Shown: positions 2,714 through 41,392 of the stretch, one piece after another
How the letters are laid out: each line of letters opens with the position of its first letter
Numbering within the stretch: the stretch's first letter is position 1
Origin: Bolinopsis microptera
Lineage: Eukaryota > Ctenophora > Tentaculata > Lobata > Bolinopsidae
Assembly (NCBI RefSeq): GCF_026151205.1
Contig: NC_087082.1
Span: 10,858,901-10,922,900, forward strand
Direction: 5' to 3'
DNA: 64,000 bases
Made by a program: the position numbers and the translations under genes
Notes under the pieces: generated by a model
Told to the model about the DNA's origin: nothing
What the model saw: the letters and a program-made list of their open reading frames with translations, nothing else
The model's database searches: none

Positions 2714-3610
2714 TGTGTTGTAGAACATTCTATTGTCTATTCCACTAATAACGTATAATGTAATATAATATATTATATCTCCTTTAGTGGCCACCAACAC
2801 AGCCGTTGTAATGTACTGTAATTCTGAAGTGTCTTTATTTGCCAGGCCGTTACTAACGGTTCCTTTCCACTGTCACTTTATTCTACAGGCTGGCATATTT
2901 CAAATATTTTTGATGTGCGTTACAATTGCTGTTACAATTTAAAGAAAACTTTAATAGCCATTCCCAACTTCCCAACCACTTTCTAATAGAAAATCAATGT
3001 AAAAAGTAAAATAATTAGATCATGAAGATAATTCCAGAGAAATCCTAAAATGAGGAGATAATCACAAATCAGGAATTATGATAAAGACTTACAATCCTGG
3101 TGGTGGTAGCACTGAACCGTGATGTAAAAGTATCTGTGTAAAGAGCGTGCGGTACAGGGTGTAAAGCGTGCGGTACAGGGTCTGTTGGGCTGGATCTGCG
3201 TTCCATCTACCACACGTCGCGTCATGATGGAGTAATCCGCTAAATGTGCAGAAATGGTCTACATAACCTGTAAACGACTCTAGTGGCAGTCACATACCAC
3301 ACTTGATGTGGCGTAGCGGAACAAAGATCGTTAGAAGTTACGAAAGAGTATTTACGGAATGTGTAGACATCGGAATTTGATTCTAATTTTCGAAAATTAT
3401 TCGTTAGATAGCATTTCATCCATTCATCACTTTGTGTCATTTAAATTTTATCTCCGGTTTCACGTGATGGTGTGCATTGGTCGTCAAATTATCACGTTCA
3501 CTCATCACTGCACTATCCGTTTCACTACCTGTTTCACTATCTATTTCACTATCTATTTAAATATCTCTTTAAATGTCACTATCTTTTTCATTAATATCCT
3601 CTTGTTTCAG
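2714..3610. other. probable kinase intron sequence
   Basis: Lies upstream of the first visible kinase exon on the same strand, so it is probably intron. No exon was recognised. The run before 3610 ends in repeated TATTTCACT-like pyrimidine-rich sequence and the acceptor TTTCAG. Confidence 0.5.
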
Positions 3611-8177
<4,567 letters not shown>

Positions 8178-14548: not shown

Positions 14549-14876
14549 CGTATTGACAATTTTATGAATAAAAAAGACAATTTTTGGAATTTATTTCAAT
14601 GTATGACATTATTATATAGTGTATTCTCTACTATTAGATTCTCCAATTTAAAAAGTTACATCCTGATTCTTTGATTCCATTGCATGCTGTATAAAATATG
14701 ATTCATAGGTATGAGTTAATCGAGATTTTGTTCATTCTTGTGAATGAAAATAATTGAATAATAACTAGTTAGCTATATTAGAACCGGTTAGCTAACAAAC
14801 ATACATAATATTATAATAGTGTTATCATGTGCAAGTATGTCTGAATTTCAAATCGTTAAATCCCAAATTTTGTTTA

Positions 14877-16483
14877 TCAAGAGCATGATGCAAAGGTTTT
14901 TTGGGTGGCACAATCTAAGTTCGGTCCTGGTGTAGTATTCAACATTTCAGCAAAGATCTTGTATCCTTCAACTCTGTGTATTGTTTTATCCATAGGTGTC
15001 TTTCCACATTCAACCCCTGTAAAATGTTGGTATGATTATTTTTACTTGTAGAAACATAGTAAAGACCTAATTACTGCTAACTCAGCTTTAATTTCACTTT
15101 GACGAACAAATTTTCAACAGAGTCTCTACAGTATATAACTGGTAATATTAAGCCTAAAATTTTTGTGATGGGATGGTAGCAGGTTGATGATTTTATTTTA
15201 AGCTTCTGATTGGAAAATGCTCTGACCCCATAGGCCAATTCAAGAACAATAGTTGTAGTTTAATAACAATTAACCTCCATTGATTATGTTGATAGTCGCT
15301 CCAAATCCTACATCTCGTCCACATTCCGTGTCACCATCAGTAGGTTTCCAGTTTTCAGTTATTGCATCGTGACATGATGGTTTGGGTTCCTGTTATGGTT
15401 TCTGTGTTATCACTAGCTGAAATTCTATCTGCGTGTTCAGTGTAAAGACAAACTACCACCTAATAAGAACAGCAAAAATGTAGGTAAAGAATTAAACTTT
15501 GAATAATATTCAAGAGTTTTTGCTTACAGATATCATGCTTTATTCGTGCTATTCAAAGATGTTGGTGTTTGTTACTGTACCTGTGGTGTCATCCAAAACC
15601 AAAGAGCTGTTTGGAATGCAAGTTTTCCTTCTTGTGCCACTCTCTGTGGGTTTTTTAGGAGCACCATATTGTCCCCGAACAGTTGCTTACTTACAAAACC
15701 ATAGTTGTAATTCCATGACAATTGCATTGGTCCTGGACGAAGGAAATCAGTTTAATAGTGTTATTAATATACAGCAACCTGTAAAAGTGTAAATATCAGG
15801 GCCAAAGTTTAGCTGGTTGAAACAATGGGTGGTCCGACTAACAGAAAATGAAACAGCTGAATCTAATTTCAAGATATGTCATATGTTGATCTACTGACCT
15901 CTGCCATGGTAACTTTTACCAGGCTGACAAGGATCATCGGAATTGTTGGCATCACAGTAAGCTACTTCCCCATTGTCACTCCTTCCAACCTTTCAAATAA
16001 TATAAATTGAAATGTGTGGGTAAAAAATTGTCTTAATTAGATGTTAGTAAATTAGATCACTATCTAGAATATTAAAATACGTGTACGGTGGTGATCGCCA
16101 AACTGATTCAGTTAGTATAAAGCTCCAGTAACGAAAATACTGTAGAGCTCAATACACTGGATTGTTACGATTAATGTAACAAGCTGAGGGGATAATAACC
16201 TCTTGCAGAAAGTAGAGGCCCCAAGCATATCTGCCGTCCGGGGCTGTATCCCAACCCCCAGTTGTCTCTTGTGCTATGTTTGCCAGGAATGCTGCTATCT
16301 CCCGTCTGTTTATTTCATCTGAGCCGTCGTTAGCAAAGAGAGGATAGCCCTTGGCTGCTTCCAGCAGGTGTTCGTATTCATACAACTTGAACTCAGCCTC
16401 CCCCTTTTCGTTTCTGTACGGAAAGAGTTCCTCAAAATCCTCCTTAGTGAAGTATTTCTCCAAACCTCCGTTATCTTCGATAC
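14877..16483 (-). other. GH19 chitinase catalytic module
   Basis: Exons 16200-16483, 15899-15989, 15581-15732, 15275-15389 and 14877-15016, about 259 aa, a full GH19 domain. Diagnostic stretches: [18 protein letters not shown] (the E of QET is the expected proton donor), [15 protein letters not shown] (second acid), [23 protein letters not shown], and [14 protein letters not shown], which fits the second GH19 signature, then INGG and PGPNLDC. The first residue of the last sushi cysteine codon comes from the previous exon, so the domain cannot start translation here. Confidence 0.92.
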
Positions 16484-19400
16484 CTGAGATAACATCTTTT
16501 TTTAAGCAAAACCAACTTACAAACAGTTGCTCATGGTTTCGCTTCATTATTATTTTTATTTCCTTACTTACAGTAATTGGTATAAGTTACTTAAATATTC
16601 ATTTTGATAACGCAAGCAAAATCTCGGTTATAATAGGGAGTGAATATAATGTCGGCTAACGCAGCATGGGGATCCATTATTAAGCTAAGGTAAGGTGTTA
16701 CAGGTGAACTTAATTAAAATGATTATTGTATTTTGTTTTATTATCATAACTTACATTCGGGAAGCTCTCCCCAATCATTCTTCTGGCACGTAAGAACACT
16801 ATTTCCCGAAATTCTGAACCTGTAACAAAATTATATTTATACTCTAAAGAATACACTGTAAAATCCAGTTTGTTTTTATTTATCAATTAGTGCTTAAAGT
16901 TCAATTAATGTGTGTGATACTGTACAAGTTTTTGCTCACCCATTCTTGCAACTTATCGTAGCTGTCGTTCCTTCTGTAACCTGTTTGATCTTTTTCACAC
17001 TGAACGTCACCTTCTTCACTGCGTTTTTCACCTTCTTAACCTTTTTCTCCAGAGCTTTAGCACTCTTCTTGTTGCACTTCTCCAAATCTCCGTTATCTTC
17101 GATACCTGAGATAAAATCTTTAAACTCACAAACAGTTGCTCATGGTTTCGCTTCATTATTATTTTTATTTCCTTACTTACAGTAATTGGTATAAGTTACT
17201 AAAATATTCATTTGATAACGGGAGCAAAATCTCGGTTATGATAGGGGAGTGAATAATATAATGTCGACTAACGCGGCATGGGGATCCATTATAAAGCTAA
17301 GGTAAGGTGTTACAGGTGAACTTAATTAAAGTGATAATTGTATTTTGTTTTATTATCATATCTTACATTCGGGAAGCTCTCTCCAATCATTCTTCTGGCA
17401 CGTAAGAACACTATTTCCCGAAATTCTGAACCTGTAACAAAATTATATTTATACTCTAAAGAATACACTGTAAAATCCAGTTTGTTTTTATTTATCAATT
17501 AGTGCTTAAAAATCAATTAAGGTGTGTGATACTGTACAAGTTTTTGCTCACCCATTCTTGCAACTTATCGTAGCTGTCGTTCCTTCTGTAACCTGTTTGA
17601 TCTTTTTCACACTGAACGTCACCTTCTTCACTGCGTTTTTCACCTTCTTAACCTTTTTCTCCAGAGCTTTAGCACTCTTCTTGTTGCACTTCTCCAAATC
17701 TCCGTTATCTTCGATACCTGAGATAAAATATTTAAACTCACAAACAGTTGCTCATGATGGTTTTGCTTCATTATTATTTGTATTTCCTTACTTACAGTAA
17801 TTGGTATAAGTTACTAAAATATTCATTTTGATAACGCAAGCAAAATCTCGGTTATAATAGGGAGTGAATATAATGTCGGCTAACGCAGCATGGGGATCCA
17901 TTATTAAGCTAAGGTAAGGTGTTACAGGTGAACTTAATTAAAATGATTATTGTATTTTGTTTTATTATCATAACTTACATTCGGGAAGCTCTCCCCAATC
18001 ATTCTTCTGGCACGTAAGAACACTATTTCCCGAAATTCTGAACCTGTAACAAAATTATATTTATACTCTAAAGAATACACTGTAAAATCCAGTTTGTTTT
18101 TATTTATCAATTAGTGCTTAAAAATCAATTAATGTGTGTGATACTGTACAAGTTTTTGCTCACCCATTCTTGCAACTTATCGTAGCTGTCGTTCCTTCTG
18201 TAACCTGTTTGATCTTTTTCGCACTGAACTTCACCTTCTTCTCTGCGTTTTTCACCTTCTTAACCTTTTTCTTCAGAGCTTTAGCACTCTTCTGGTTGCA
18301 CTCTGAAGAAAGGAACTTTTATCGGTCAGTAGATATAATATGACATATTTTAAATCATATAACGTACAGTATAGATAGCAATAATATCTTTTCTTGCTCA
18401 TACTAACATAGAACATACTAATTAACTCCAGCAGATAATCTTAAATAAAACAAATTACTTGATTTATTGTCTTCATCCTCATTTTCATCATCACTTTCAT
18501 CCTCATTTTCATCGTCATTTTCATCGTCATTTTCATCGTCATTCTCATCGTCATTTTCATCGTCATTTTCATCGTCATTTTCATCGTCATTTTCATCATC
18601 ATTTTCATCACTGTTGTCATCATTTTCTGATGGAGAGAGATATGTTCGCATTGCAGTCAGGAAAGGGTTTTTTCCATCTCCGCACAGGTCTTTGAAATCA
18701 TCCATTGAAGTATCCCAAACCATTCCACCTGCTAGCCCCATGTCTTTGATGTACTGCATCTGCAAAAGTTAGACTGTATAAAAACTGATAAACAATTACT
18801 GGCATCTGACCTATCTGAATTTTGATTTAAAAACAATAATATTACCTTTATTTTAACTGTTTCAAGATCATCAAATCCAACCCACTGGTCCCCCATGTAG
18901 GCGTGAGGACCAACAATGCATTCATCACCCTTAACTTTAGTCCAGCCCTTGTCCTTGATGTTCAGGCAGATCTCATGATATCCCATATAACCTGCTTGCT
19001 TTGTCCACTTACCTAAAAGTAGAGTTCACATAATATTATGAAGGTAGATAATTAAAAGTTATCATGGATTAGTTTCAGTGCCTACATGGCTACTCTATAA
19101 GTCTATTTATATTAGCATCGTTACCTTCAACCCCGGCTCCACTTGAATCAGCTCCGATGCCATTATTTGCAGAGTTTGTTAGAGTAAAAGACCGACCATA
19201 AATGCCTAGTCCCATCTGGATCTTGTTGGCTGGAAAGCCTTTAGCAATCCAGTGTTTAACAGCAGTGTCCGTGTTGAGTTTGTCAGCATTGCAACCTAAG
19301 AGAGGAGAATTGTGTCCTGTGACAGTCTCCCAAGAGCCATGGAAATCGTAAGACATGAGGTTAAGATAGTCAAGGTACTGAGCCAGAACTGGAACATCGT

Positions 19401-22400
19401 AGCCAGCATCAATAACAGCCTGACTGGCAGAAACAGCAGCAGTTACCAGCATATTGTGAGGAGCAAACAGCTCCTTCAACTCCTTTACCCAGATTCCAAA
19501 GTTGGTCTTGTCTGATGGATCTGGGTTGGGTAGATTGTGTTATTAATGGCAGTATAACTACAAAATATATCACTTTACTCTATTGATTTATAGAAGGAGT
19601 AGGTACTGTTTATGTATCGGTATGTCCTAAGTTGTTGTTATATTTTATACCTGATTCATCACAATTAGCCTGCCAACAGGCGGGATACTCCCAATCCAGG
19701 TCCAGTCCATCAAACTTCCACTTTTGAAGAATTTCCAGAACATCAGAATTGAATGCCGCCCTGAAATTTGTTGGTGATTAATTGTACATTTATTATACAT
19801 TTTTAGGTCAAGGAATGGTCCTTAGATAAAGATGTGCATTCATATAATCTTAACAGGAGTTAGAAAGTAAAGAGACTTGTATCTTAAGATCAGATAATAT
19901 ATCTAAACTCTACCTCAGCTGAGGGGACTTGGCTAGATCCGAATACTTGGAGCCTTCGCTGTCATTCCAGCCGCCAATAGCCAAGAGAACCTTTCTGACC
20001 CTGGATCCTGCAGCATTCTTTAAATCAACAATCTTTTTAAAGAACTCTCCTCCACCCACATCAGTGTCTGCCCAAGGATCATGGACCTTGATCTTGTTGT
20101 TGTCCAAGACAGCGAATGCGTAGTTTATAATGGTACAGAGTGTTGGGTCTACATTATCTGCTGAGTATTTACCGTTCCCCTCACGGTACCAGGCCCAGTT
20201 AATAAAGTAGCACACAACGTCTTTATCTCCATAGTTTTCCGAGGATTCATCATCGTTGTTTTCGTCATTTTTATCGTCATTTTCATCGTCATTTTCATCG
20301 TCATTTTCATCGTCATTTTCATCTTCATTTTCATCATCACTTTCATCACTGTTGTCATCATTTTCTGATGGAGAGAGATATGTTCGCATTGCAGTCAGGA
20401 AAGGGTTTTTTCCATCTCCGCACAGGTCTTTGAAATCATCCATTGAAGTATCCCAAACCATTCCACCTGCTAGCCCCATGTCTTTGATGTACTGCATCTG
20501 CAAAAGTTAGACTGTATAAAAACTGATAAACAATTACTGGCATCTGACCTATCTGAATTTTGATTTAAAAACAATAATATTACCTTTATTTTAACTGTTT
20601 CAAGATCATCAAATCCAACCCACTGGTCCCCCATGTAGGCGTGAGGACCAACAATGCATTCATCACCCTTAACTTTAGTCCAGCCCTTGTCCTTGATGTT
20701 CAGGCAGATCTCATGATATCCCATATAACCTGCTTGTTTTGTCCACTTACCTAAAAGTAGAGTTCACATAATATTATGAAGGTAGATAATTAAAAGTTAT
20801 CATGGATTAGTTTCAGTGCCTACATGGCTACTCTATAAGTCTATTTATATTAGCATCGTTACCTTCAACACCGGCTCCACTTGAATCAGCTCCGATCCCA
20901 TTATTTGCAGAATTGGTTAGAGTAAAAGACCGACCATAAATGCCTAGTCCCATCTGGATCTTGTTGGCTGGAAAGCCTTTAGCAATCCAGTGTTTAACAG
21001 CAGTGTCCGTGTTGAGTTTGTCAGCATTGCAACCTAAGAGAGGAGAATTGTGTCCTGTGACAGTCTCCCAAGAGCCATGGAAATCGTAAGACATGAGGTT
21101 AAGATAGTCAAGGTACTGAGCCAGAACTGGAACATCGTAGCCAGCATCAATAACAGCCTGACTGGCAGAAACAGCAGCAGTTACCAGCATATTGTGAGGA
21201 GCAAACAGCTCCTTCAACTCCTTTACCCAGATTCCAAAGTTGGTCTTGTCTGATGGATCTGGGTTGGGTAGATTGTGTTATTAATGGCAGTATAACTACA
21301 AAATATATCACTTTACTCTATTGATTTATAGAAGGAGTACTGTATCGGTATGTCCTAAGTTGTTGTTATATTTTATACCTGATTCATTACAATTAGCCTG
21401 CCAACAGGCGGGATACTCCCAATCCAGGTCCAGTCCATCAAACTTCCACTTGTGAAGAATTTCCAGAACATCAGAATTGAATGCCGCCCTGAAATTTGTT
21501 GGTGATTAATTGTACATTTATTATACATTTTTAGGTCAAGGAATGATCCTTAGATAAAGATGTGCATTCATATAATCTTAACAGGATTTAGAAAGTAAAG
21601 AGACTTGTATCTTAAGATCAGATAATATATCTAAACTCTACCTAAGCTGAGGGGATTTGGCTAGATCCGAATACTTGGAGCCTTCGCTGTCATTCCAGCC
21701 GCCAATAGCCAAGAGAACCTTTCTGACCCTGGATCCTGCAGCATTCTTTAAATCAACAATCTTTTTAAAGAACTCTCCTCCACCCACATCAGTGTCTGCC
21801 CAAGGATCATGGACCTTGATCTTGTTGTTGTCCAAGACAGCGAATGCGTAGTTTATAATGGTACAGAGTGTTGGGTCTACATTATCTGCTGAGTATTTAC
21901 CGTTCCCCTCACGGTACCAGGCCCAGTTAATAAAGTAGCACACAACGTCCTTATCTCCATAGTTTTCCGAGGATTCATCATCGTTGTTTTCGTCATTTTC
22001 ATCGTCATTTTCATCGTCATTTTCATCGTCATTTTCATCACCATCTTCATCATCATTTTCATCTTCATTTTCATCATCATTTTCATCACTGTTGTCATCA
22101 TTTTCTGATGGAGAGAGATATGTTCGCATTGCAGTCAGGAAAGGGTTTTTTCCATCTCCGCACAGGTCTTTGAAATCATCCATTGAAGTATCCCAAACCA
22201 TTCCACCTGCTAGCCCCATGTCTTTGATGTACTGCATCTGCAAAAGTGAGACTGTATAAAAACTGATAAACAATTACTGGCATCTGACCTATCTGAATTT
22301 TGATTTAAGAACAATAGTATTACCTTTATTTTAACTGTTTCAAGATCATCAAATCCAACCCACTGGTCCCCCATGTAGGCATGAGGACCAACAATGCATT

Positions 22401-25400
22401 CATCACCCTTAACTTTAGTCCAGCCCTTGTCCTTGATGTTTAGGCAGATCTCATGATATCCCATATAACCTGCTTGTTTTGTCCACTTACCTAAAAGTAG
22501 AGTTCACATATTATGAAGGTAGATAATTAAAAGTTATCATGGATTAGTTTCAGTGCCTACATGGCTACTCTATAAGTCTATTTATATTAGCATCGTTACC
22601 TTCAACACCGGCTCCACTTGAATCAGCTCCGATCCCATTATTTGCAGAGTTTGTTAGAGTAAAAGACCGACCATAAATGCCTAGTCCCATCTGGATCTTG
22701 TTGGCTGGAAAGCCTTTAGCAATCCAGTGTTTAACAGCAGTGTCCGTGTTGAGTTTGTCAGCATTGCAACCTAAGAGAGGAGAATTGTGTCCTGTGACAG
22801 TCTCCCAAGAGCCATGGAAATCGTAAGACATGAGGTTAAGATAGTCAAGGTACTGAGCCAGAACTGGAACATCGTAGCCAGCATCAATGACAGCCTGACT
22901 GGCAGAAACAGCAGCAGTTACCAGCATATTGTGAGGAGCAAACAGCTCCTTCAACTCCTTTACCCAGATTCCAAAGTTGGTCTTGTCTGATGGATCTGGG
23001 TTGGGTAGATTGTGTTATTAATGGCAGTACATAACTACAAAATATATCACTTTACTTTATTGATTTATAGAAGGAGTACTGTATCGGTATGTCCTAAGTT
23101 GTTGTTATATTTTATACCTGATTCAACACAATTAGCCTGCCAACAGGCGGGATACTCCCAATCCAGGTCCAGTCCATCAAACTTCCACTTGTGAAGAATT
23201 TCCAGAACATCAGAATTGAATGCCGCCCTGAAATTTGTTGGTGATTAATTGTACATTTATTATACATTTTTAGGTCAAGGAATGATCCTTAGATAAAGAT
23301 GTGCATTCATATAATCTTAACAGGATTTAGAAAGTAAAGAGACTTGTATCTTAAGTTCAGCTAATATATCTAAACTCTACCTAAGCTGAGGGGATTTGGC
23401 TAGATCCGAATACTTGGAGCCTTCGCTGTCATTCCAGCCGCCAATAGCCAAGAGAACTTTTCTGACCCTGGATCCTGCAGCATTCTTTAAATCGACAATC
23501 TTTTTAAAGAACTCTCCTCCACCCACATCAGTGTCTGCCCAAGGATCATGGACCTTGATCTTGTTGTTGTCCAAGACAGCGAATGCGTAGTTTATAATGG
23601 TACAGAGTGTTGGGTCTACATTATCTGCTGAGTATTTACCGTTCCCCTCACGGTACCAGGCCCAGTTAATAAAGTAGCACACAACGTCCTTATCTCCATA
23701 GTTTTCCGAGGATTCATCATCGTTGTTTTCGTCATTTTCATCGTCATTTTCATCGTCATTTTCATCGTCATTTTCATCACCATCTTCATCATCATTTTCA
23801 TCTTCATTTTCATCATCATTTCCATCACTGTTGTCATCATTTTCTGATGGAGAGAGATATGTTCGCATTGCAGTCAGGAAAGGGTTTTTTCCATCTCCGC
23901 ACAGGTCTTTGAAATCATCCATTGAAGTATCCCAAACCATTCCACCTGCTAGCCCCATGTCTTTGATGTACTGCATCTGCAAAAGTGAGACTGTATAAAA
24001 ACTGATAAACAATTACTAGCATCTGACCTATCTGAATTTTGATTTAAGAACAATAGTATTACCTTTATTTTAACTGTTTCAAGATCATCAAATCCAACCC
24101 ACTGGTCCCCCATGTAGGCATGAGGACCAACAATGCATTCATCACCCTTAACTTTAGTCCAGCCCTTGTCCTTGATGTTCAGGCAGATCTCATGATATCC
24201 CATATAACCTGCTTGTTTTGTCCACTTACCTAAAAGTAGAGTTCACATAATATTATGAAGGTAGATAATTAAAAGTTATCATGGATTAGTTTCAGTGCCT
24301 ACATGGCTACTCTATAAGTCTATTTATATTAGCATCGTTACCTTCAACACCGGCTCCACTTGAATCAGCTCCGATCCCATTATTTGCAGAATTGGTTAGA
24401 GTAAAAGACCGACCATAAATGCCTAGTCCCATCTGGATCTTGTTGGCTGGAAAGCCTTTAGCAATCCAGTGTCTAACAGCAGTGTCCGTGTTGAGTTTGT
24501 CAGCATTGCAACCTAAGAGAGGAGAATTGTGTCCTGTGACAGTCTCCCAAGAGCCATGGAAATCGTAAGACATGAGGTTAAGATAGTCAAGGTACTGAGC
24601 CAGAACTGGAACATCGTAGCCAGCATCAATGACAGCCTGACTGGCAGAAACAGCAGCAGTTACCAGCATATTGTGAGGAGCAAACAGCTCCTTCAACTCC
24701 TTTACCCAGATTCCAAAGTTGGTCTTGTCTGATGGATCTGGGTTGGGTAGATTGTGTTATTAATGGCAGTATAACTACAAAATATATAATTTTACTCTAT
24801 TGATTTATAGAAGGAGTACTGTATCGGTATGTCCTAAGTTGTTGTTATATTTTATACCTGATTCAACACAATTAGCCTGCCAACAGGCGGGATACTCCCA
24901 ATCCAGGTCCAGTCCATCAAACTTCCACTTTTGAAGAATTTCCAGAACATCAAAATTGAATGCCGCCCTGAAATTTGTTGGCGATTAATTGTACATTTAT
25001 TATACATTTTTAGGTCAAGGAATGATCCTTAGATAAAGATGTGCATTCATATAATCTTAACAGGATTTAGAAAGTAAAGAGACTTGTATCTTAAGTTCAG
25101 CTAATATATCTAAACTCTACCTAAGCTGAGGGGATTTGGCTAGATCCGAATACTTGGAGCCTTCGCTGTCATTCCAGCCGCCAATAGCCAAGAGAACTTT
25201 TCTGACCCTGGATCCTGCAGCATTCTTTAAATCGACAATCTTTTTAAAGAACTCTCCTCCACCCACATCAGTGTCTGCCCAAGGATCATGGACCTTGATC
25301 TTGTTGTTGTCCAAGACAGCGAATGCGTAGTTTATAATGGTACAGAGTGTTGGGTCTACATTATCTGCTGAGTATTTACCGTTCCCCTCACGGTACCAAG

Positions 25401-27785
25401 CCCAGTTAATAAAGTAGCACACAACGTCTTTATCTCCATAGTTGTCCGAGGATTCATCATCGTTGTTTTCGTCATTTTCGTCATCATTTTCATCGTCATT
25501 TTCATCGTCATTTTCATCACCATCTTCATCATCATTTTCATCTTCATTTTCATCATCATTTTCATCACTGTTGTCATCATTTTCTGATGGAGAGAGATAT
25601 GTTCGCATTGCAGTCAGGAAAGGGTTTTTTCCATCTCCGCACAGGTCTTTGAAATCATCCATTGAAGTATCCCAAACCATTCCACCTGCTAGCCCCATGT
25701 CTTTGATGTACTGCATCTGCAAAAGTGAGACTGTATAAAAACTGATAAACAATTACTAGCATCTGACCTATCTGAATTTTGATTTAAGAACAATAGTATT
25801 ACCTTTATTTTAACTGTTTCAAGATCATCAAATCCAACCCACTGGTCCCCCATGTAGGCATGAGGACCAACAATGCATTCATCACCCTTAACTTTAGTCC
25901 AGCCCTTGTCCTTGATGTTCAGGCAGATCTCATGATATCCCATATAACCTGCTTGTTTTGTCCACTTACCTAAAAGTAGAGTTCACATAATATTATGAAG
26001 GTAGATAATTAAAAGTTATCATGGATTAGTTTCAGTGCCTACATGGCTACTCTATAAGTCTATTTATATTAGCATCGTTACCTTCAACACCGGCTCCACT
26101 TGAATCAGCTCCGATCCCATTATTTGCAGAATTGGTTAGAGTAAAAGACCGACCATAAATGCCTAGTCCCATCTGGATCTTGTTGGCTGGAAAGCCTTTA
26201 GCAATCCAGTGTCTAACAGCAGTGTCCGTGTTGAGTTTGTCAGCATTGCAACCTAAGAGAGGAGAATTGTGTCCTGTGACAGTCTCCCAAGAGCCATGGA
26301 AATCGTAAGACATGAGGTTAAGATAGTCAAGGTACTGAGCCAGAACTGGAACATCGTAGCCAGCATCAATGACAGCCTGACTGGCAGAAACAGCAGCAGT
26401 TACCAGCATATTGTGAGGAGCAAACAGCTCCTTCAACTCCTTTACCCAGATTCCAAAGTTGGTCTTGTCTGATGGATCTGGGTTGGGTAGATTGTGTTAT
26501 TAATGGCAGTATAACTAAAAAATATATCACTTTACTCTATTGATTTATAGAAGGAGTACTGTATCGGTATGTCCTAAGTTGTTGTTATATTTTATACCTG
26601 ATTCATCACAATTAGCCTGCCAACAGGCGGGATACTCCCAATCCAGGTCCAGTCCATCAAACTTCCACTTTTGAAGAATTTCCAGAACATCAGAATTGAA
26701 TGCCGTCCTGAAATTTGTTGGCGATTAATTGTACATGTATTATACATTTTTAGGTCAAGGAATGCTCCTTAGATAAAGATGTGCATTCATATAATCTTAA
26801 CAGGATTTAGAAAGTAAAGAGACTTGTATCTTAAGATCAGCTAATATATCTAAACTCTACCTCAGCTGAGGGGACTTGGCTAGATCCGAATACTTGGAGC
26901 CTTCGCTGTCATTCCAGCCGCCAATAGCCAAGAGAACTTTTCTGACCCTGGATCCTGCAGCATTCTTTAAATCAACAATCTTTTTAAAGAACTCTCCTCC
27001 ACCCACATCAGTGTCTGCCCAAGGATCATGGACCTTGATCTTGTTGTTTTCCAAGACAGCGAATGCGTAGTTTATAATGGTACAGAGTGTTGGGTCTACA
27101 TTATCTGCTGAGTATTTACCGTTCCCCTCACGGTACCAGGCCCAGTTAATAAAGTAGCACACAACGTCTTTATCTCCATAGTTGTCCGAGGATTCATCAT
27201 CGTTGTTTTCGTCATTTTCATCGTCATTTTCATCGTCATTTTCATCGTCATTTTCATTGTCATTTTCATCACCATCTTCATCATCATTTTCATCTTCATT
27301 TTCATCAGATGAATCACCTTCATTGTTTTCATCACTGTTGTCATCAATTTTGCAATCTACTTGTGCTTCCCAGTTGCACTGCAAAGACGAATATAAATGG
27401 AAAAGCTATTCTAACTAATTTCCCAAGGAGTAAATTACATCAATAAATCACATTTTATATTAATTTGTAGTTTATAAACTTTGTTCCGACTCATGGATCT
27501 CCTTATCTCCTACTGCATTGATTATTTCAGAGTATTTTTAAATGTCTGATTTTAAATTTTTAAGGCTATTATGTTACAAGGACAACTTACGTTCTGAATG
27601 TCTTGATCCCAAAGTGTCCCATCTGCACAGGGGTACCTCCAAGCTACACCAGACCCACAGTTGTAGTAATATTCACAAGAGGTAGGGTCAGTAAACAGAC
27701 CATTTGGATCAGGACAGTCAAAGTCTTGGTCGTGTTCTTGAGATAGTGCTCCTGCAATCCAACATAACAGGAAGAGTGCTATCAT
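14877..27785 (-). CDS. multi-catalytic chitinase: CBM14, five GH18, three sushi, GH19
   Basis: Predicted secreted enzyme of about 2,732 aa from 33 exons, all phase-compatible, 8,199 coding bases. Exon 1 is 27591-27785, with signal peptide [19 protein letters not shown]14 domain (six Cys) is completed in exon 2 (26861-27378). Five GH18 domains follow at about residues 135, 558, 981, 1404 and 1823, each with the catalytic motif DGLDLDWE. They are separated by D/E/N-rich linkers. The last GH18 exon (18459-18759) ends in a phase-1 donor (GTAATT) that joins a phase-1 acceptor at 18302. That splice leads into three lysine-rich sushi domains and a GH19 domain ending at 14877. GH18 (retaining, TIM barrel) and GH19 (inverting, lysozyme-like) both cut beta-1,4-GlcNAc chains. 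No start codon, signal peptide or room for a promoter exists between the GH18 and GH19 parts; the gap is a 156-bp intron. Reading through that intron instead gives a stop at 18418 and a GH18-only product. I am confident of each domain and less so of the single transcript. Confidence 0.75.
16755..18302 (-). other. three tandem lysine-rich sushi (CCP) modules
   Basis: Each module uses two exons: 18164-18302 with 17979-18043, 17552-17717 with 17367-17431, and 16940-17105 with 16755-16819. The genomic period is about 612 bp and introns are copied with exons. Each has four sushi cysteines: one before the basic segment, then TISC, LTC and PEC. The usual GF and W positions are present ([20 protein letters not shown]). 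Between the first and second cysteine lies a basic stretch of K-rich heptads ([15 protein letters not shown]). The first module's N-terminal exon is 27 bp shorter and lacks the IEDNGDLE lead-in. The phase-1 ends of each unit make it a symmetric, duplicable cassette. Confidence 0.85.
18637..20224 (-). other. GH18 module 5
   Basis: Exons 19914-20497 (3' part), 19651-19760, 19125-19520, 18846-19012 and the start of 18459-18759. Motifs intact. Its C-terminal exon carries the longest pure DDEN run (about ten 12-bp units, 18480-18610) and then splices toward the sushi and GH19 exons. Confidence 0.92.
20375..21952 (-). other. GH18 module 4
   Basis: Exons 21642-22237 (3' part), 21379-21488, 20863-21258, 20584-20750 and the start of 19914-20497. 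Motifs intact. The linker that follows it is 12 bp (one DDEN-like unit) shorter than the others. Confidence 0.92.
22115..23691 (-). other. GH18 module 3
   Basis: Exons 23381-23976 (3' part), 23118-23227, 22600-22995, 22324-22490 and the start of 21642-22237. Motifs intact, TAVKHW variant. The acidic linker before it has one DGND variant. Confidence 0.92.
23854..25431 (-). other. GH18 module 2
   Basis: Exons 25121-25716 (3' part), 24858-24967, 24342-24737, 24063-24229 and the start of 23381-23976. All GH18 motifs intact. Shares the TAVRHW variant with module 1. Introns are nearly identical to those of modules 1 and 3. Confidence 0.92.
25594..27171 (-). other. GH18 module 1
   Basis: Exons 26861-27378 (3' part), 26598-26707, 26082-26477, 25803-25969 and the start of 25121-25716. 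Motifs in order: [12 protein letters not shown] (first strand), [15 protein letters not shown] (catalytic acid E), [18 protein letters not shown]. Length of about 368 aa is complete for GH18 with its insertion domain. It differs from the others by VLENN and by a longer, more divergent acidic linker on its N-terminal side. Confidence 0.92.
27352..27785 (-). other. signal peptide and CBM14 (peritrophin-A) module
   Basis: Exon 27591-27785 and the start of the next exon at 27378. The six cysteines follow the type-2 chitin-binding pattern: [21 protein letters not shown], then CNW and VDC in exon 2. CBM14 domains anchor chitinases to chitin. The intron is phase 0, between the fourth and fifth cysteines. 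Confidence 0.9.
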
Positions 27786-27826: not shown

Positions 27827-29081
27827 CGAGAAGTTATAATCCGGTCGCATTATCGCAATATCCTTCATCTCAAATCGACACAAAACCAATTAAGATTTTG
27901 AAAAAAAGCTCGAATCAAAGAGAGAAAAAAGTAGGATTCGAAACACAGTACAGAAACCAGAAGGTGCACTTGAACCACTGCACTGGCGACTCCAACAACA
28001 ACTGGATAAGAATGAGGAATATCATAATATACCAGCTACCACAAGCTAGTATACTGGCATTATACTGCAGTAGTTTCTCTTTTATAACAGGTCGAACTAG
28101 AACGTCGAGTAAACAATGCATATTCTATGTAATTTCTTAACCACTTGTATAAATTCTATGCCATCTAAACAGTTCCATTGTCTTGTTTTGCTAAAGGGGG
28201 CATGAAGAAGAACATAACCCCGGAATGTCGTTGTCCTTTGTTATGTCTGCGATCATTTCACCTGTAAACAAAGAAACAGAGAAAGGTCACACTGTCACCA
28301 ACAAACATACCAACAAACAAGTCACCAGGTATTGTGAAGACACACTGATATTGATCATTGTTTACATATTTAACAAGAAGAGACACCTAAGCATACCTCT
28401 TGGAAGTTTACCCTTTTGGATGTGTTAAAATATGAATATCCTAAATAATGATAAAAGTTTAGATAGATTTCAAGCTTTTCATGCTTGGTTTGGGTCACAA
28501 CTTTACATCCTTTGGTGTTAGGACTTGAGGAAATGGTGTGTAACTTTTCTTGTAGTTTCTGAAAGGACATGACAGAGTGAACAAATCCTCAAATAAAACA
28601 AATTGAAATTGAGAACCTAATGAGGCCAGGTTGTTGACCTCAGCGCGGAGGTGCAGTCTATACTGATAGGTGCAATATATAATAGCCTTGCTTCTGTTTT
28701 AAGACCCGACAGTAATCCTGGGTTTTGATTGGTCATTGATGGAAGCTGGTTGGTTGATAACAGTCACGTGACATAAAATATTATGGTTACCGCTTCACCA
28801 GTATCCAGACTTATTAACCTACTGATAATTATTTCACATGTGACATCAATTCTTCACATCAAAGTTTGTGAAGACACCGCGTGTGAATCTGACTGTGTAA
28901 TTTTCTTCATCTCACAGCGATAATATTTAACAATATGAATTAGTCATTATTATCATGGTGATTTAAGTAAGCTACTGTTCCGAATCTCTCTGTTCATGTG
29001 ATTCGCTGTAATCTCCTGACTTGTGCACAAAGGACAGTATCTCTGCCGGTGTAGAATGAAATGCTAGTGTAGTATCCGGAA
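27827..29081. other. chitinase upstream region, no gene recognised
   Basis: Presumed 5' flank of the chitinase gene. Short frames on both strands show no domain. The 3' end grades into GH19-like relics from about 29040. Confidence 0.4.
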
Positions 29082-29310
29082 CAACTGTGCCTTTTTTCAT
29101 CGGTGTTTTTCCTCGTTCAATCGTTGTGAAACATCACGTTGCTTATATTTGCTCCAAATCCTGTGTCTGGTCCGTCAGTCAGTCAGTCAGGCGGTTTCAC
29201 GAATTCTGGTCAACTGTGACGTAACATAAATACATATTTATGACAAACATTACAAAATAGTCAACACAAGAATATCAAAATATTAATTCAAGTAACCAAG
29301 TGTAATGTAT
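29082..29310 (-). pseudogene. GH19-like exon relic, left copy
   Basis: On the minus strand the fragment reads DTGFGANIS, then an ERGKTPMKK-like stretch. It resembles two adjacent exons of the GH19 module (VGFGATIN and ECGKTPMDK) but with no intron between them and with stops. The nucleotide match to the right copy at 31128 is strong and continues beyond the exon into flanking sequence to about the ORF1 start. Confidence 0.6.
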
Positions 29311-31127
29311 GCTGCAGCTAAGTCTGATAAATACACTCTTTTGGACAACAATATTGATGCAGTCAAACAATTCTTTGTTAGTTGAGTTGAAAGAGCTAAA
29401 AAGCATGCATCTCCTCAAAACAAGAGTGCAGCTACATTTCAGTCTTCATCGATCCCAGACACTAACAAAGAATATAATCCTTGGAATGATAAGCAGAGAA
29501 CAAATAATCTGTCTAAAGTGGTTTCTGTACAAAAGGACAATAATGGTAAAATCATCAATGATAACGACAGACTCCGAAAACAAATTGATGAATTAAAAAC
29601 CTTTTTCTTCCAATCCAACTACCCTAAAACTATGGTAGATAACATCAGTGAAAAAGTCAAAGGCTTTGAAAGATGCCTCAAACCACTGGACAACTCAAAC
29701 AGCAGTGTCCTGGTCCCAAAGTCTCCAGAACCAGCAGTCCGCGTTATTTCAACATTTGGCAGCGATCAAGAGTTAGTTGAATCGGTAAAAAGATTGGAAC
29801 CAGAACTCAGTAGAACCAGGAGCTTCTCAGGATTATCTGGTTCCCATACAAGTGGAAACACCCCAGGCTCCCCAATATCATCTAGAGCCAGTACATCACG
29901 CCCTATCTTCAAATTCGTCAGACGTACTGGAACATCATTTAGAAGGAAGTTAGTCAAAGCAAAACAGTTTGCGGATGACTTAACCCAACCTCACACAAGA
30001 CCATGTGGGGGCAGACACTGCGGTACCTGTAACATCATATCTCCACATCCATCAATAACAGTCAATGGACAGCGAGCCAAAGCAGTGTCTGGTACATGTG
30101 TCAGCTACAATGTTGTATACATCTTCAGTTGCCAACTTTGTAATATGTGTTATGTAGGAAGAACGGTGCAGCCCCTAAGGGCACGAGTAAACGAACATCG
30201 CGCTCATTACTACAAACTCATTTCGGACAATACGTTTGTCCCTGAAGAAAACGACGACGGATTCAGCTTGGGCAAACACCTTGTAGAAGTTCATAACATG
30301 AAACAACGTGACAATTTCAACCAGGCTTATAAAGTGTCAATTCTCAGTAATAGTAGCCCAAGAACTCTAGAAGTGGATGAACACCGTTACATTCAGAAAC
30401 TAAGAACTATACGTCCATTGGGGCTCAATGCCGTGGACCCGTTTGGGATTCCATTATTGGATTTATCTTAAAGGTTTTCCATTGCATTGGGGCACAAAAG
30501 TTATGTTTTTAAAAATATTCATAGGTATCGTTTTTATTTGTTTCATTTCATTTCCAATGTTACACTTTGTAGGAACTGATATTAACCGAGTTTCTGATTC
30601 AGGATGTTACTGAAGATAGTAATGAAAATGTTTTAACACCTCAGTACTGTGTTTTACTACAGCTCAACCTGCTCAGTCTGACTATTTGGGAATTTAAACT
30701 CTTGATAATGGTAAACTAATCAACTCTGAAAAACTTGAAAAGATATGTGTACAAAATGGTTTCTCAGTGCACAAAACATTTCACATGAAGAAATCTGATA
30801 CTACTGGAATGGTACTTAATCCTCAAACTGATGTTGATGTTCTGACTGCTAAACTTAGGGATGCTGATCATTCAGTTGTGAAAGTGTCGACTGAGTACCG
30901 ATTGTTCACATTGTAGGATTATCAAAGGAATACACTGCGGATGAATTAAAATCTATAATCTTAAAACAGAATCCTGGAATATCAACACTATTTGAATGTA
31001 CCTCTACGTCTATTGATGATAAACTGATCGATATCTTGGCTGTTGAACCTCTCAAAAACAATGTTCAAATCTTTAAGGCAATTGTAAAGGTCAGCAAAGT
31101 TATTAGATCCATTCTTGCTAAGTTTGA
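29305..31127 (+). pseudogene. LINE ORF1-like gene, broken and split by a Penelope fragment
   Basis: The 5' part starts at ATG 29305 (MYAAAKSDKYTLLDNN), meets an in-frame TGA near 29372, and continues to a charged, coiled-coil-like segment RLRKQIDELKTFF near 29610. The 3' part resumes near 30662 (LDNGKLINSEKLEKI, HIVGLSKEYTADELK, NNVQIFKAIVKVSKVIRS) and ends at TAA about 31127. It has stops and a frameshift. The second part looks like the RRM-like RNA-binding region of LINE ORF1 proteins. The two parts are separated by about 1.05 kb of Penelope-like sequence. Confidence 0.6.
29612..30640 (+). mobile_element. Penelope-like element 3' fragment with GIY-YIG endonuclease
   Basis: Open frame to the stop at 30471. 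After a variable region comes PCGGRHCGTCNI, a cysteine motif typical of Penelope-like elements. The GIY-YIG nuclease core follows: VVYIFSCQLC, MCYVGRTVQPLRARVNEHR, and a downstream glutamate in VDEHRYIQK. Penelope elements couple a reverse transcriptase to this nuclease to insert into DNA. The reverse transcriptase part is missing, so the copy is 5'-truncated. The nuclease frame itself looks intact. Exact element ends are uncertain. Confidence 0.8.
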
Positions 31128-31392
31128 ATAACTGTGCCTTTTTTCATCGGTATTTCTCCTCGATCAATCGTTAAAAAACATGTTGTTTATAGTTTCTCCA
31201 AATCCTGTGTCTGGTCTGCAGGCTTTGTCACAGTCAGACTGTTTCCGAGATTCTAGTTATTGTATCGTGACATGGTGGTTTGGGTGCCTGTTAACTGTGA
31301 AATAAATTAGTATCTATGACAAACATTACAAAATAATCAAAACAATATGATTGATTCAGGTAACCTTTAACAAGGTGTAGTATATGATATTA
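31128..31392 (-). pseudogene. GH19-like exon relic, right copy
   Basis: On the minus strand: APKPPCHDTIT, matching [11 protein letters not shown] of the GH19 module, then stops, then DTGFGETIN and a GEIPMKKGT stretch. It is about 230-260 bp long and in direct orientation with the left copy at 29082. It begins immediately at the ORF1-like stop. Confidence 0.65.
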
Positions 31393-34528: not shown

Positions 34529-37500
34529 ATGGCTGAGTCTGAGAAAGAAGTAGAAGATGTAAGTTGAAAATTGTGTCTCTTTTTGAAAACCAGTGCTCTT
34601 TCTCTCTTTCCTTGCCTCATTTACCTCTTAGTTTCCCAGGTAAATTGTAGCAATGTTTTCAGTGGTCTTCACCCTTCAAAAAGACGGTGACTAATCTCGC
34701 ACTTCCTAGTTTTAAATCTATTTATAGAATTAGATGATTGCTTGGATATTTTTAAAATATTCTTAGATTTTCAGTTCTTCGCTGACCTTCAGATTGGTCA
34801 GTAAATTGGAGCATTTTGGAAAGATTGTGTCCATCTACAGAAAATTACCTGTTATTGAATGCAGACAATGATTGACGCACAGCTATATTGGCCTCCTAGA
34901 TTTCACTTAGGTCCTCGCAAAAAAGGACTGTTCTGCCATCAACCTTATATATATATGTTAGGTTTTCCAGGTAACAAAAAAGAGTTTTAACTCTTCTATA
35001 CCAATATGAACATTCCAGCTGTCTGTTTAGCGTAGAATGTGAAGAATGTCGATTATGGCTTAGTTCTGTAAGAGTAAGACAATAAAACTCTTGATCAGAT
35101 AAGATCTTTCATACAACTGTTCAGTTTTCAAAGCTTTCATTGTGTGCCGGGCTATGTAATCAGTTTTTACACAGACTAAATTAAAAGACGCCACCTAGAT
35201 CTCTCAATGAAGCAGTGAACGAGTGAAATACCGTTTTCACTATTTTTTGGAAACTTGGTTAAAATCAGAGTGCAGTCTGAAGCATAATAATAAGATCTCT
35301 AAGCATTTCTGCTGGTTTTAACCATTATGCTATTATGCGTAATTCTTTTATCTTGTATTTAATCACCTTCCCGTAAAGCACAATTATTTGTTATTGATAC
35401 ATGTTTATCTAACACTGTACAGTGTACACTGATACAGATATCTCGATGATATCATATCTACCCCTTTCTAACAATGTGCCCCTGAAGGACGCTAAATCTC
35501 GATGATATCTACCCCTTTCTAACAATGTGCCCCTTAAGAACGCTATACCTTGATAATATCTACCCCTTTCTAACAATGTGCCCCTGAAGGACGCTATATC
35601 TCGATGATATCTACCCCTTTCTAACAATGTGCCCCTGAAGGACGCTATATCTTGATAATATCTACCCCTTTCTAACAATGTGCCCCTTAAGAACGCTATA
35701 TCTTGATGATATCTACCCCTTTCTAACAATGTGCCCCTTAAGAACGCTATATCTTGATAATATCTACCCCTTTCTAACAATGTGCCCCTGAAGGACGCTA
35801 TATCTTGATAATATCTACCCCTTTCTAACAATGTGCCCCTGAAGGACGCTATATCTTGATAATATCTACCCCTTTCTAACAATGTGCCCCTGAAGGACGC
35901 TATATCTCGATGATATCTACCCCTTTCTAACAATGTGCCCCTTAAGAACGCTATATCTTGATAATATCTACCCCTTTCTAACAATGTGCCCCTGAAGGAC
36001 GCTATATCTTGATGATATCTACCCCTTTCTAACAATGTGCCCCTGAAGGACGCTATATCTTGATAATATCTACCCCTTTCTAACAATGTGCCCCTGAAGG
36101 ACGCTATATCTTGATGATATCTACCCCTTTCTAACAATGTGCCCCTTAAGAACGCTATATCTTGATAATATCTACCCCTTTCTAACAATGTGCCCCTGAA
36201 GGACGCTATATCTTGATAATATCTACCCCTTTCTAACAATGTGCCCCTGAAGGACGCTATATCTCGATGATATCTACCCCTTTCTAACAATGTGCCCCTG
36301 AAGGACGCTATATCTTGATAATATCTACCCCTTTCTAACAATGTGCCCCTGAAGGACGCTATATCTTGATGATATCTACCCCTTTCTAACAATGTGCCCC
36401 TTAAGAACGCTATATCTTGATAATATCTACCCCTTTCTAACAATGTGCCCCTGAAGGACGCTATATCTTGATAATATCTACCCCTTTCTAACAATGTGCC
36501 CCTGAAGGACGCTATATCTTGATAATATCTACCCCTTTCTAACAATGTGCCCCTGAAGGACGCTATATCTCGATGATATCTACCCCTTTCTAACAATGTG
36601 CCCCTTAAGAACGCTATATCTTGATAATATCTACCCCTTTCTAACAATGTGCCCCTGAAGGACGCTATATCTTGATGATATCTACCCCTTTCTAACAATG
36701 TGTCCCTGAAGGACGCTATGACAGTTACCTCGCAACCCGGATCAGCTGCAGGAAGCACGAAAGAGATAGAGGAGTACCTGGTGCAATTGGCCCCGTCTGA
36801 GATTGCCAGTTAGTATCACTTATAAAATAGATGATTTTAGCTGAAAATAGTTTTCTGAGTTCTCAAATTGAGCAAGTAATTGATAACACCGAGAATTAAA
36901 ATCTCTCCTTGTTTTGATGAGCCCAATAAGTAATTATTTTGTATTGAATACACAGTACACACCTACACACTCAGGCCACTACTATAATTCTATTTCGCTA
37001 TCAGATTACCAAACTAACCTCCAATCAGAGTGGACAACAGATGAAGTGTGTACTCAGTTCCTGGAGAGAATAGAGTTCGCTTATCTGATAGAGAACTTTA
37101 AAGTTAACAATATAACTGGCAGGGTGAGGTCTTTTTCCCTATTATTTCACTATTATTTCACTATTATTTCACTCTTATTTCACTATTATTTCACTGTTAT
37201 TTCACTATTATTTCACTCTTTTCAGAGAAGACGGTGTGATTCAAATGTTTTAGAGGTTACTCCTCTCTTATTTGCTAGGATTTAAATATTATCCCAAAGT
37301 CCCAAGGGCCAAGCCCCCAAATTAAAACAAATTTAAAAATTGGAGAGGCCGAATAAGAAAATGAAGATCTATAATTATTATAATATTATGTTATTATGAT
37401 TATAATTTCCAAACACAGGTTTTACTGATGTTGGAGGAGAGGAATTTAGTGGAGATGGGTGTTAATGTTATCGGGGACAGACTCATGATTCTCAGCTATC

Positions 37501-41125: not shown

Positions 41126-41392
41126 TTGTGGAACACAACAAGAAAATTGAGAATAATCTTGTGCGAGGGTAGGGACCCAGATGTCGTTTCTAACCCAAAT
41201 AAACTTTAAGGAGGAATCTCATCAGTAGCCGCACCTCCTTACTCGGTTTCTGAACTGAAATTCTATGGGCCTCCAGACGGCCAGACCGAGTATTACCATC
41301 CCATCCTTATAGAGTTCATCACAAGTAGCACCCATATAATAGGTATTCTGTATCTAGGTACATTAGGTATTTATGTATATTTAAGAGGTTGA

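What the first reader, a model, noticed from the sequence alone, without database searches (positions are those of the whole stretch)
14877..27785. One gene appears to fuse two unrelated chitinase families (five GH18 and one GH19)
The GH18 array and the GH19 domain lie on the same strand. Only a 156-bp intron (18303-18458) separates the last GH18 exon from the first sushi exon, with donor GTAATT, acceptor CTTCAG and matching phase 1. The GH19 part has no signal peptide or start, and its first codon completes a cysteine of the last sushi domain. Summed over 33 exons the coding length is 8,199 bases, divisible by three. Retaining GH18 and inverting GH19 enzymes on one secreted chain with a chitin-binding domain would be an unusual processive or multi-mode chitin degrader. 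I know of no described animal protein with this architecture.
Basis: partly seen in the sequence, partly recalled or inferred. Interest (0 to 1): 0.93.

Follow-up and report, generated by a model that had tools for sequence, protein, structure and literature searches.

The report
Comb jelly gene joins two chitinases
A comb-jelly genome carries what reads as one gene for a giant secreted protein that strings together five copies of one kind of chitin-cutting enzyme and one of a second, unrelated kind; we saw no such animal protein in our searches, and RNA evidence is still needed.

Summary
On the minus strand, 33 exons (27785 to 14877), all GT-AG, join into one 8,199-base frame of 2,732 residues: signal-peptide-like start + CBM14, five GH18 modules, three sushi-like repeats, one GH19 domain. 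The genome is a ctenophore, probably Bolinopsis microptera.

The one-gene reading is well supported but not proven. The GH19 part has no usable start: no in-frame ATG in intron 22 or exon 23, first Met after both catalytic glutamates, no secretory first exon found. A second GH19 gene is signal peptide-CBM14-linker-GH19 with the same intron phases at both boundaries, so the window gene looks like that plan with GH18 and sushi inserted. GH18 modules are under purifying selection (pN/pS 0.13). No transcripts were available; a GH18-only isoform or trans-splicing is not excluded.

"Unprecedented" holds only for animals, in what I searched: GH18-GH19 proteins are reported in a diatom and in bacteria, and I found two flavobacterial ORFs. 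Most likely a digestive chitinase for crustacean prey. New variant of a known kind.

The parts
27591..27785 (-). Exon 1: ATG, signal-peptide-like start (by eye) and first half of CBM14 (phase 0 donor)
27349..27378 (-). Start of exon 2: second half of CBM14 ([10 protein letters not shown])
27184..27351 (-). Acidic linker 0 (56 aa, net charge -33)
25579..27183 (-). GH18 module 1 (parts of exons 2-6), FDGLDLDWE intact
23839..25443 (-). GH18 module 2
22100..23703 (-). GH18 module 3
20360..21964 (-). GH18 module 4
18622..20236 (-). GH18 module 5
18459..18621 (-). Acidic linker 5 (54 aa, net -37), largely a 12-bp minisatellite, end of exon 22 (phase 1)
18303..18458 (-). Critical intron 22 between GH18 and sushi/GH19; no AATAAA or ATTAAA, one GATAAA at 18323; read-through would stop at 18420-18418
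17979..18302 (-). Lys-rich sushi-like repeat 1 (exons 23-24)
17367..17717 (-). Lys-rich sushi-like repeat 2 (exons 25-26)
16755..17105 (-). Lys-rich sushi-like repeat 3 (exons 27-28)
16200..16483 (-). GH19 exon 29, with both catalytic Glu
15899..15989 (-). GH19 exon 30
15581..15732 (-). GH19 exon 31
15275..15389 (-). GH19 exon 32
14877..15016 (-). GH19 exon 33 with stop codon
14590..14595 (-). AATAAA, 282 bases after the stop: candidate poly(A) signal
31080..31330 (-). Decayed fragment like GH19 exon 32 and the start of exon 33, upstream of the gene
29000..29240 (-). Second decayed fragment of the same kind, 86% identical to the first over about 90 bases

Best explanation
One gene encodes one secreted protein of about 305 kDa: CBM14, five near-identical GH18 chitinase domains on long polyacidic linkers, three Lys-rich sushi-like repeats, and a C-terminal GH19 chitinase domain. 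It most likely arose when a GH18 unit entered the linker exon of a gene built like the CBM14-linker-GH19 gene on C6; unequal crossing-over in the 12-bp linker minisatellite then multiplied the GH18 module. It probably works as a digestive chitinase: CBM14 anchors it on prey cuticle while flexible linkers let retaining GH18 and inverting GH19 sites attack different chain regions. Shown: gene structure, intact motifs, selection on GH18, the paralogue's architecture. Inferred: one mRNA, secretion, digestion, synergy, the order of evolutionary steps.
For: Full open frame through 33 GT-AG exons. The GH19 side has no own start: no in-frame ATG between 18458 and the end of exon 23, first Met at residue 2600 after Glu 2545 and 2567; a scan of 27300-16484 for hydrophobic first exons of at least 15 codons ending in an acceptable phase 1 donor gave 11 candidates, 10 in GH18 units and one at 17901, none signal-peptide-like by my reading. 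C6 paralogue is signal peptide-CBM14-Pro linker-GH19, phase 0 inside CBM14 and phase 1 at the GH19 boundary, as here (checked). Best splice pair of 15; its donor and acceptor scores lie within the range of the gene's other introns. No AATAAA/ATTAAA in intron 22, one AATAAA 282 bases after the final stop. GH18 modules: pooled pN/pS 0.13 over 10 non-independent pairs. Both catalytic motifs intact. Mnemiopsis and Hormiphora, which digest chitinous prey, have three GH18 chitinases each and Beroe ovata no functional one (PMC11184263, passages). In Streptomyces F-3, adding GH19 to two of three GH18 enzymes raised total activity somewhat (PMC6545677, passages).
Against: No RNA or protein data. 63 of 2000 simulated spacers offer as good a splice pair. 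The donor is not consensus at +5. Reading through it gives a stop at 18420-18418 after 13 codons; a variant signal GATAAA lies at 18323 and AATAAA at 18104 and 17966, so a GH18-only isoform is possible. The first-exon scan does not cover first exons shorter than 15 codons or with weaker donors. Trans-splicing is common in ctenophores (PMC8527503, passages). Sushi repeat 1 differs from 2 and 3 by 6 and 5 codons, all nonsynonymous, so constraint is not shown there. Selection on GH19 was not tested. In OfChtII two joined GH18 domains showed no synergy (PMC5827449, passages).
Confidence: 0.77

Rival explanations
1. Two neighbouring genes: a GH18 gene ending at 18418 and a separate sushi-GH19 gene.
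For: Stop codon 13 codons after the donor; GATAAA at 18323, AATAAA at 18104 and 17966. A separate GH19 gene exists on C6. Decayed GH19 fragments lie upstream, so other GH19 copies have existed here.
Against: No ATG or secretory first exon found for the GH19 part, only 156 bp between the parts, matching phases. The C6 GH19 gene starts with signal peptide-CBM14, and the only CBM14 hit at this locus lies upstream of the GH18 array.
Confidence: 0.11
2. One locus, two products: the long fusion plus a GH18-only form made by retaining intron 22 and early polyadenylation. This can be true together with the best explanation.
For: Read-through adds 13 codons then a stop; GATAAA at 18323, AATAAA at 18104.
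Against: No AATAAA or ATTAAA inside intron 22. No RNA data either way.
Confidence: 0.25
3. Operon-like unit: a spliced leader is trans-spliced to exon 23, giving a separate sushi-GH19 mRNA.
For: [quoted passage not shown]
Against: The leader printed there has no ATG (by eye), and the sushi-GH19 frame has none before the catalytic Glu, so the product would lack start and signal peptide. The 3' 26 bases of that leader have no match in the window with up to 3 mismatches, though it comes from a distant species.
Confidence: 0.05
4. Assembly artefact: GH18 copy number or the junction is wrong.
For: Five units of about 1.74 kb are nearly identical, a hard case for assembly.
Against: The copies carry distinct changes: 2 to 5 nonsynonymous and 4 to 12 synonymous differences per pair, and intron indels in 7 of 10 pairs. 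The GH18-GH19 junction does not depend on copy number.
Confidence: 0.04

Closest known systems
Insect group II chitinase (ChtII, Cht10; OfChtII)
   Same: Best PDB match of the GH18 module (6jav, E 1.1e-114); several GH18 domains and chitin-binding domains on one chain (PMC5827449, passages).
   Different: Group II has 4-7 chitin-binding domains and, in OfChtII, inactive GH18 copies and Pro-rich hinges; here one CBM14, five copies all with the motif, acidic linkers, sushi repeats and a GH19 domain.
Diatom GH18-GH19 fusions TwChi10/22 (Thalassiosira weissflogii, PMC12028343)
   Same: GH18 and GH19 on one eukaryotic protein; CBM14 occurs among that diatom's chitinases (one passage).
   Different: Not an animal. 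Copy number and sushi are not mentioned in the passage seen. Relatedness not tested.
Bacterial dual GH18-GH19 chitinases (Sediminicola luteus L133, Flavobacteriaceae CRH L109; one in Endozoicomonadaceae, PMC10576748)
   Same: L133 and L109: N-terminal GH18 and downstream GH19 in one ORF, same order as here.
   Different: One GH18 each, CBM5/12 and Big_7 instead of CBM14 and sushi; their GH19 does not group with the ctenophore pair, so the resemblance looks convergent.
Own-genome GH19 paralogue on C6 (CBM14-Pro linker-GH19)
   Same: Same outer plan and intron phases; GH19 58% identical; one clade, support 100/97.
   Different: No GH18 or sushi in the part read.
Ctenophore GH18 chitinases (three each in Mnemiopsis and Hormiphora, PMC11184263)
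   Same: May include the orthologue; three GH18 loci here too.
   Different: The passages concern GH18 only; the term GH19 has zero occurrences in that main text. Orthology not tested.

Membership tests
GH18 chitinase | Glyco_hydro_18 domain over the cut-off | tested here: met
   295.9 bits, cut-off 29.6, for module 5; genome scan rings in the five units
GH18 chitinase | Catalytic DxxDxDxE motif | tested here: met
   5 of 5 modules
GH18 chitinase | Chitin hydrolysis with retention | not testable with these tools
   needs assay
GH19 chitinase | Glyco_hydro_19 domain over the cut-off | tested here: met
   242.9 bits, cut-off 25.5, profile positions 3-232 of 232
GH19 chitinase | Two catalytic Glu, 22 residues apart | tested here: met
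   E73 and E95 invariant in 3 sequences (barley E67/E89, recalled)
GH19 chitinase | Chitin hydrolysis with inversion | not testable with these tools
   needs assay
Insect group II chitinase | 4-5 GH18 domains on one chain (PMC5827449) | tested here: met
   five, on the gene model
Insect group II chitinase | 4-7 chitin-binding domains (PMC5827449) | tested here: not met
   one CBM14 found
Insect group II chitinase | No GH19 domain (recalled) | tested here: not met
   GH19 present
Single-polypeptide GH18-GH19 chitinase | Both domains in one open frame | tested here: met
   spliced gene model
Single-polypeptide GH18-GH19 chitinase | One mRNA and one protein | not testable with these tools
   no transcripts available
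Sushi/CCP repeat | Pfam Sushi match and four Cys per repeat | tested here: met
   3 stretches, but the best begins at profile position 11 of 56 and Cys1-Cys2 holds a Lys-rich stretch

The most novel reading that the evidence does not exclude
This is the first animal protein that joins retaining GH18 and inverting GH19 chitinases on one chain, made when a GH18 gene entered the linker exon of a CBM14-GH19 gene and was multiplied by its own linker minisatellite. Its polyanionic linkers (-26 to -37 each) and polycationic sushi block (+30) could fold the chain on itself or hold it in gut mucus, making a built-in two-family chitin degrader for crustacean prey.
Probability: 0.55. Interest if true: 0.72.

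Novelty: new variant of a known kind. Interest (0 to 1): 0.57.

Why it matters
Two chitinase families with different folds and opposite stereochemistry normally act as separate enzymes. A natural animal protein joining six catalytic domains of both kinds would give a ready test of whether covalent GH18-GH19 coupling speeds attack on crystalline chitin, and of how an early-branching predatory animal digests crustaceans. It also offers a traceable case of domain insertion inside a linker exon followed by repeat-driven module multiplication. Surveys of ctenophore chitinases by GH18 alone would miss the GH19 end.

Tried and rejected
Exon models: one search crashed on a search range, one search had exon edges off by one; fixed. 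The first tblastn ran without the C6, C3 and C15 loci because of wrong file names; repeated with them. Origin of the GH19 domain: left open. The two ctenophore GH19 form one clade (100/97) in a tree of 80 bacterial, 2 plant and 2 ctenophore rows; in that midpoint-rooted drawing their nearest neighbours are 9 bacterial rows, 8 of them Bacteroidota (98/89), on a long branch, so old transfer is neither shown nor excluded; no other animal or diatom GH19 was in it. Region 4773-5361 looked GH19-like by eye; (E up to 1) gave no match there, and the list was cut before the rows of the window GH19 query. Upstream relics: with the C6 protein as query the 31-kb relic scored E 0.20, no better than the reversed-window control (0.05); the claim rests on the window GH19 query (E 5.8e-4) and the DNA alignment. 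Other Pfam hits on the sushi block (Serine_rich, ChiC, cEGF, DUF211, XFP_N) were set aside: no stretch passed on its own. A Hormiphora leader search in the window gave 0 matches.
Full report
CHECK OF THE OBSERVATION. I rebuilt the gene on the minus strand from splice sites (crashed). Pfam, given four pieces, finds CBM_14, Glyco_hydro_18, Sushi (three stretches) and Glyco_hydro_19. All five GH18 modules carry FDGLDLDWE. GH19 carries both catalytic glutamates, invariant with the C6 paralogue and an ancestral plant-type GH19.

ORGANISM. G000 has 264.65 Mb in 232 contigs. I saw the lengths of eight contigs: C1, C3, C6, C11, C12 and C13 are 15 to 26 Mb, C14 and C15 under 0.2 Mb; hits at 6.9 to 17 Mb show that C2, C5, C8, C9 and C10 are long too; C4 and C7 were not seen. 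This fits 13 chromosomes, the number in three ctenophores; Bolinopsis microptera is listed at 265 Mb, but with 346 scaffolds (PMC11797021, passages). A photoprotein ORF of this genome (L075) matches berovin (E 1.2e-121) and mnemiopsin (E 2.4e-121). So: a ctenophore, probably Bolinopsis microptera; the species is inference.

ONE GENE OR TWO. Between 18458 and the end of exon 23 no ATG is in the sushi frame, and the first Met of the sushi-GH19 part is residue 2600, after catalytic Glu 2545 and 2567. A scan of 27300-16484 for hydrophobic first exons of at least 15 codons ending in an acceptable phase 1 donor gave 11 candidates: 10 lie in the repeated GH18 units, one at 17901 is not signal-peptide-like by my reading. 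Intron 22 holds no AATAAA or ATTAAA but one weaker variant, GATAAA at 18323; AATAAA occurs at 14595 after the final stop, but also at 18104 and 17966. The splice pair 18459/18302 is the best of 15 legal pairs; 63 of 2000 simulated spacers do as well.

PARALOGUES. Whole-genome searches found GH19 only here and on C6, and GH18 here, on C3 and on C15; such searches score only the best candidates. The C6 gene is signal peptide-CBM14-Pro-rich linker-GH19, with a phase 0 intron inside CBM14 and a phase 1 intron before GH19, confirmed by joining its first three exons. The window gene has the same two boundaries, with GH18 and sushi between them. The C3 gene is an intronless signal peptide-CBM14-linker-GH18; its first 100 residues are 49% identical to those of the C6 GH19 gene, so the N-terminal part has probably been exchanged between the two families. 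CBM14 gave 8 hits genome-wide, one of them exon 1 here and none on C15.

SELECTION AND MODULE HISTORY. GH18 modules differ by 2-5 nonsynonymous and 4-12 synonymous changes per pair; pooled pN/pS over 10 non-independent pairs is 0.13, introns differ by 0.6-2.6%. The linkers are a 12-bp minisatellite, a natural place for unequal crossing-over. Sushi repeats differ by 1 to 6 codons, all nonsynonymous, which does not show constraint. Linkers carry -26 to -37, the sushi block +30; the whole protein is 305 kDa with pI 4.36.

UPSTREAM RELICS. Two decayed fragments like GH19 exon 32 and the start of exon 33 lie at about 31.1-31.3 and 29.0-29.2 kb on the same strand (E 5.8e-4 for the first; DNA alignment). 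With the C6 protein as query the first scored only E 0.20, no better than a reversed control. A DNA search with the second found only these two places in the genome (it skips simple and very common words). GH19 copies therefore probably existed here before. This fits a tandem unit ending in GH19, and also a separate GH19 gene.

RELATIVES ELSEWHERE. A scan of the bacterial and archaeal genome collection with two peptide patterns found 184 GH19 loci, of which the best 80 were kept. A motif scan of the 80 ORFs flagged two with a GH18 active-site motif and one spurious match. Of the 15 ORFs of these 80 given to Pfam, 2 hold both GH18 and GH19: L133 Sediminicola luteus and L109 Flavobacteriaceae CRH; seven others pair GH19 with GH5, GH8 or GH16. 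So at least 2 of 80; the rest were not scanned with Pfam. In a tree of 84 rows the two ctenophore GH19 form one clade, 100/97, next to nine bacterial rows on a long branch; no other animal sequences were in it. The closest solved structure for GH18 is insect group II chitinase; for GH19, plant and ancestral plant-type enzymes.

LITERATURE. Ten searches were answered (one search failed). Those on the GH18-GH19 pair were 16, 28, 46, 47 and 54; I saw no animal GH18-GH19 protein in their listings or in the passages opened (4 of 9 papers were opened). This covers open-licence PMC papers only. Fifteen papers were seen as passages found by term, none as a whole: PMC12028343 (diatom fusions TwChi10/22), PMC10576748 (one dual GH18-GH19), PMC6626019 (one GH18-GH19), PMC11184263 (three GH18 chitinases each in Mnemiopsis and Hormiphora, none functional in Beroe ovata; GH19 not mentioned), PMC8547705 (GH19 database: a small Metazoa group), PMC6545677, PMC5827449, PMC8527503, PMC11797021, PMC6733828, PMC13231562 (two chitinase genes among genes in windows under selection in Mnemiopsis), PMC6019070 (Hydra expresses both families), PMC1945033, PMC12567117, PMC12211065. 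PMC10232365 was not read (one search failed).

CBM14 ON GH19. PMC8547705 says that the non-plant eukaryotic GH19 groups contain no known CBM, though a figure legend there notes a metazoan sequence with CBM5/12. Both ctenophore GH19 genes start with CBM14 (the C6 one by its sequence and the CBM_14 hit on C6), which is itself notable.

MECHANISM. Most likely a secreted digestive chitinase. CBM14 anchors, GH18 and GH19 sites cut in different ways on one chain. Support for function is indirect: chitinous diet and chitinase loss in Beroe, acidic chitinase activity in ctenophore extracts as cited in PMC6733828. Synergy is unproven: mixing GH19 with GH18 enzymes helped in two of three pairs in Streptomyces, but joined GH18 domains of OfChtII did not synergise. 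Roles in defence or regeneration are not excluded.

VERDICT. Observation confirmed; fusion likely (0.77) but awaiting RNA; new in animals as far as searched, known in kind from a diatom and bacteria.

Noticed in passing
window 31080-31330 and 29000-29240 (-): Two decayed GH19 fragments upstream of the gene, apparently without the intron between exons 32 and 33.
   Followed up: partly
window 29386-30471 (+): Long ORF with a GIY-YIG-like stretch, resembling a Penelope-type element (recalled), lying between the two GH19 fragments.
   Followed up: no
L067 4552-5994 (-): Intronless signal peptide-CBM14-GH18 gene on C3, possibly a retrocopy; its N-terminus resembles that of the C6 GH19 gene (49% over 100 residues).
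   Followed up: partly
L068 252-3536: Repeats spaced in multiples of 47 bp that can be read as Pro/Thr/Glu linker, just upstream of the C15 GH18 gene.
   Followed up: no
L133 1622-6298 and L109 1772-5662: Flavobacterial ORFs with GH18 and GH19 catalytic domains in one protein.
   Followed up: partly
own genome C1, C3, C5, C13: Tandem arrays of photoprotein genes open over nearly their whole length, with spacings near 1 kb.
   Followed up: no
window 35409-36809 (-): 466-residue ORF made of a short repeated unit (SFRGTLLERGRYYQDIA): a coding-length minisatellite.
   Followed up: no
window 41329-42951 (+): 540-residue ORF resembling a reverse transcriptase of a LINE element (by eye).
   Followed up: no
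window 3335-7222 (+): ORF pieces that look like a tyrosine kinase domain (by eye).
   Followed up: no
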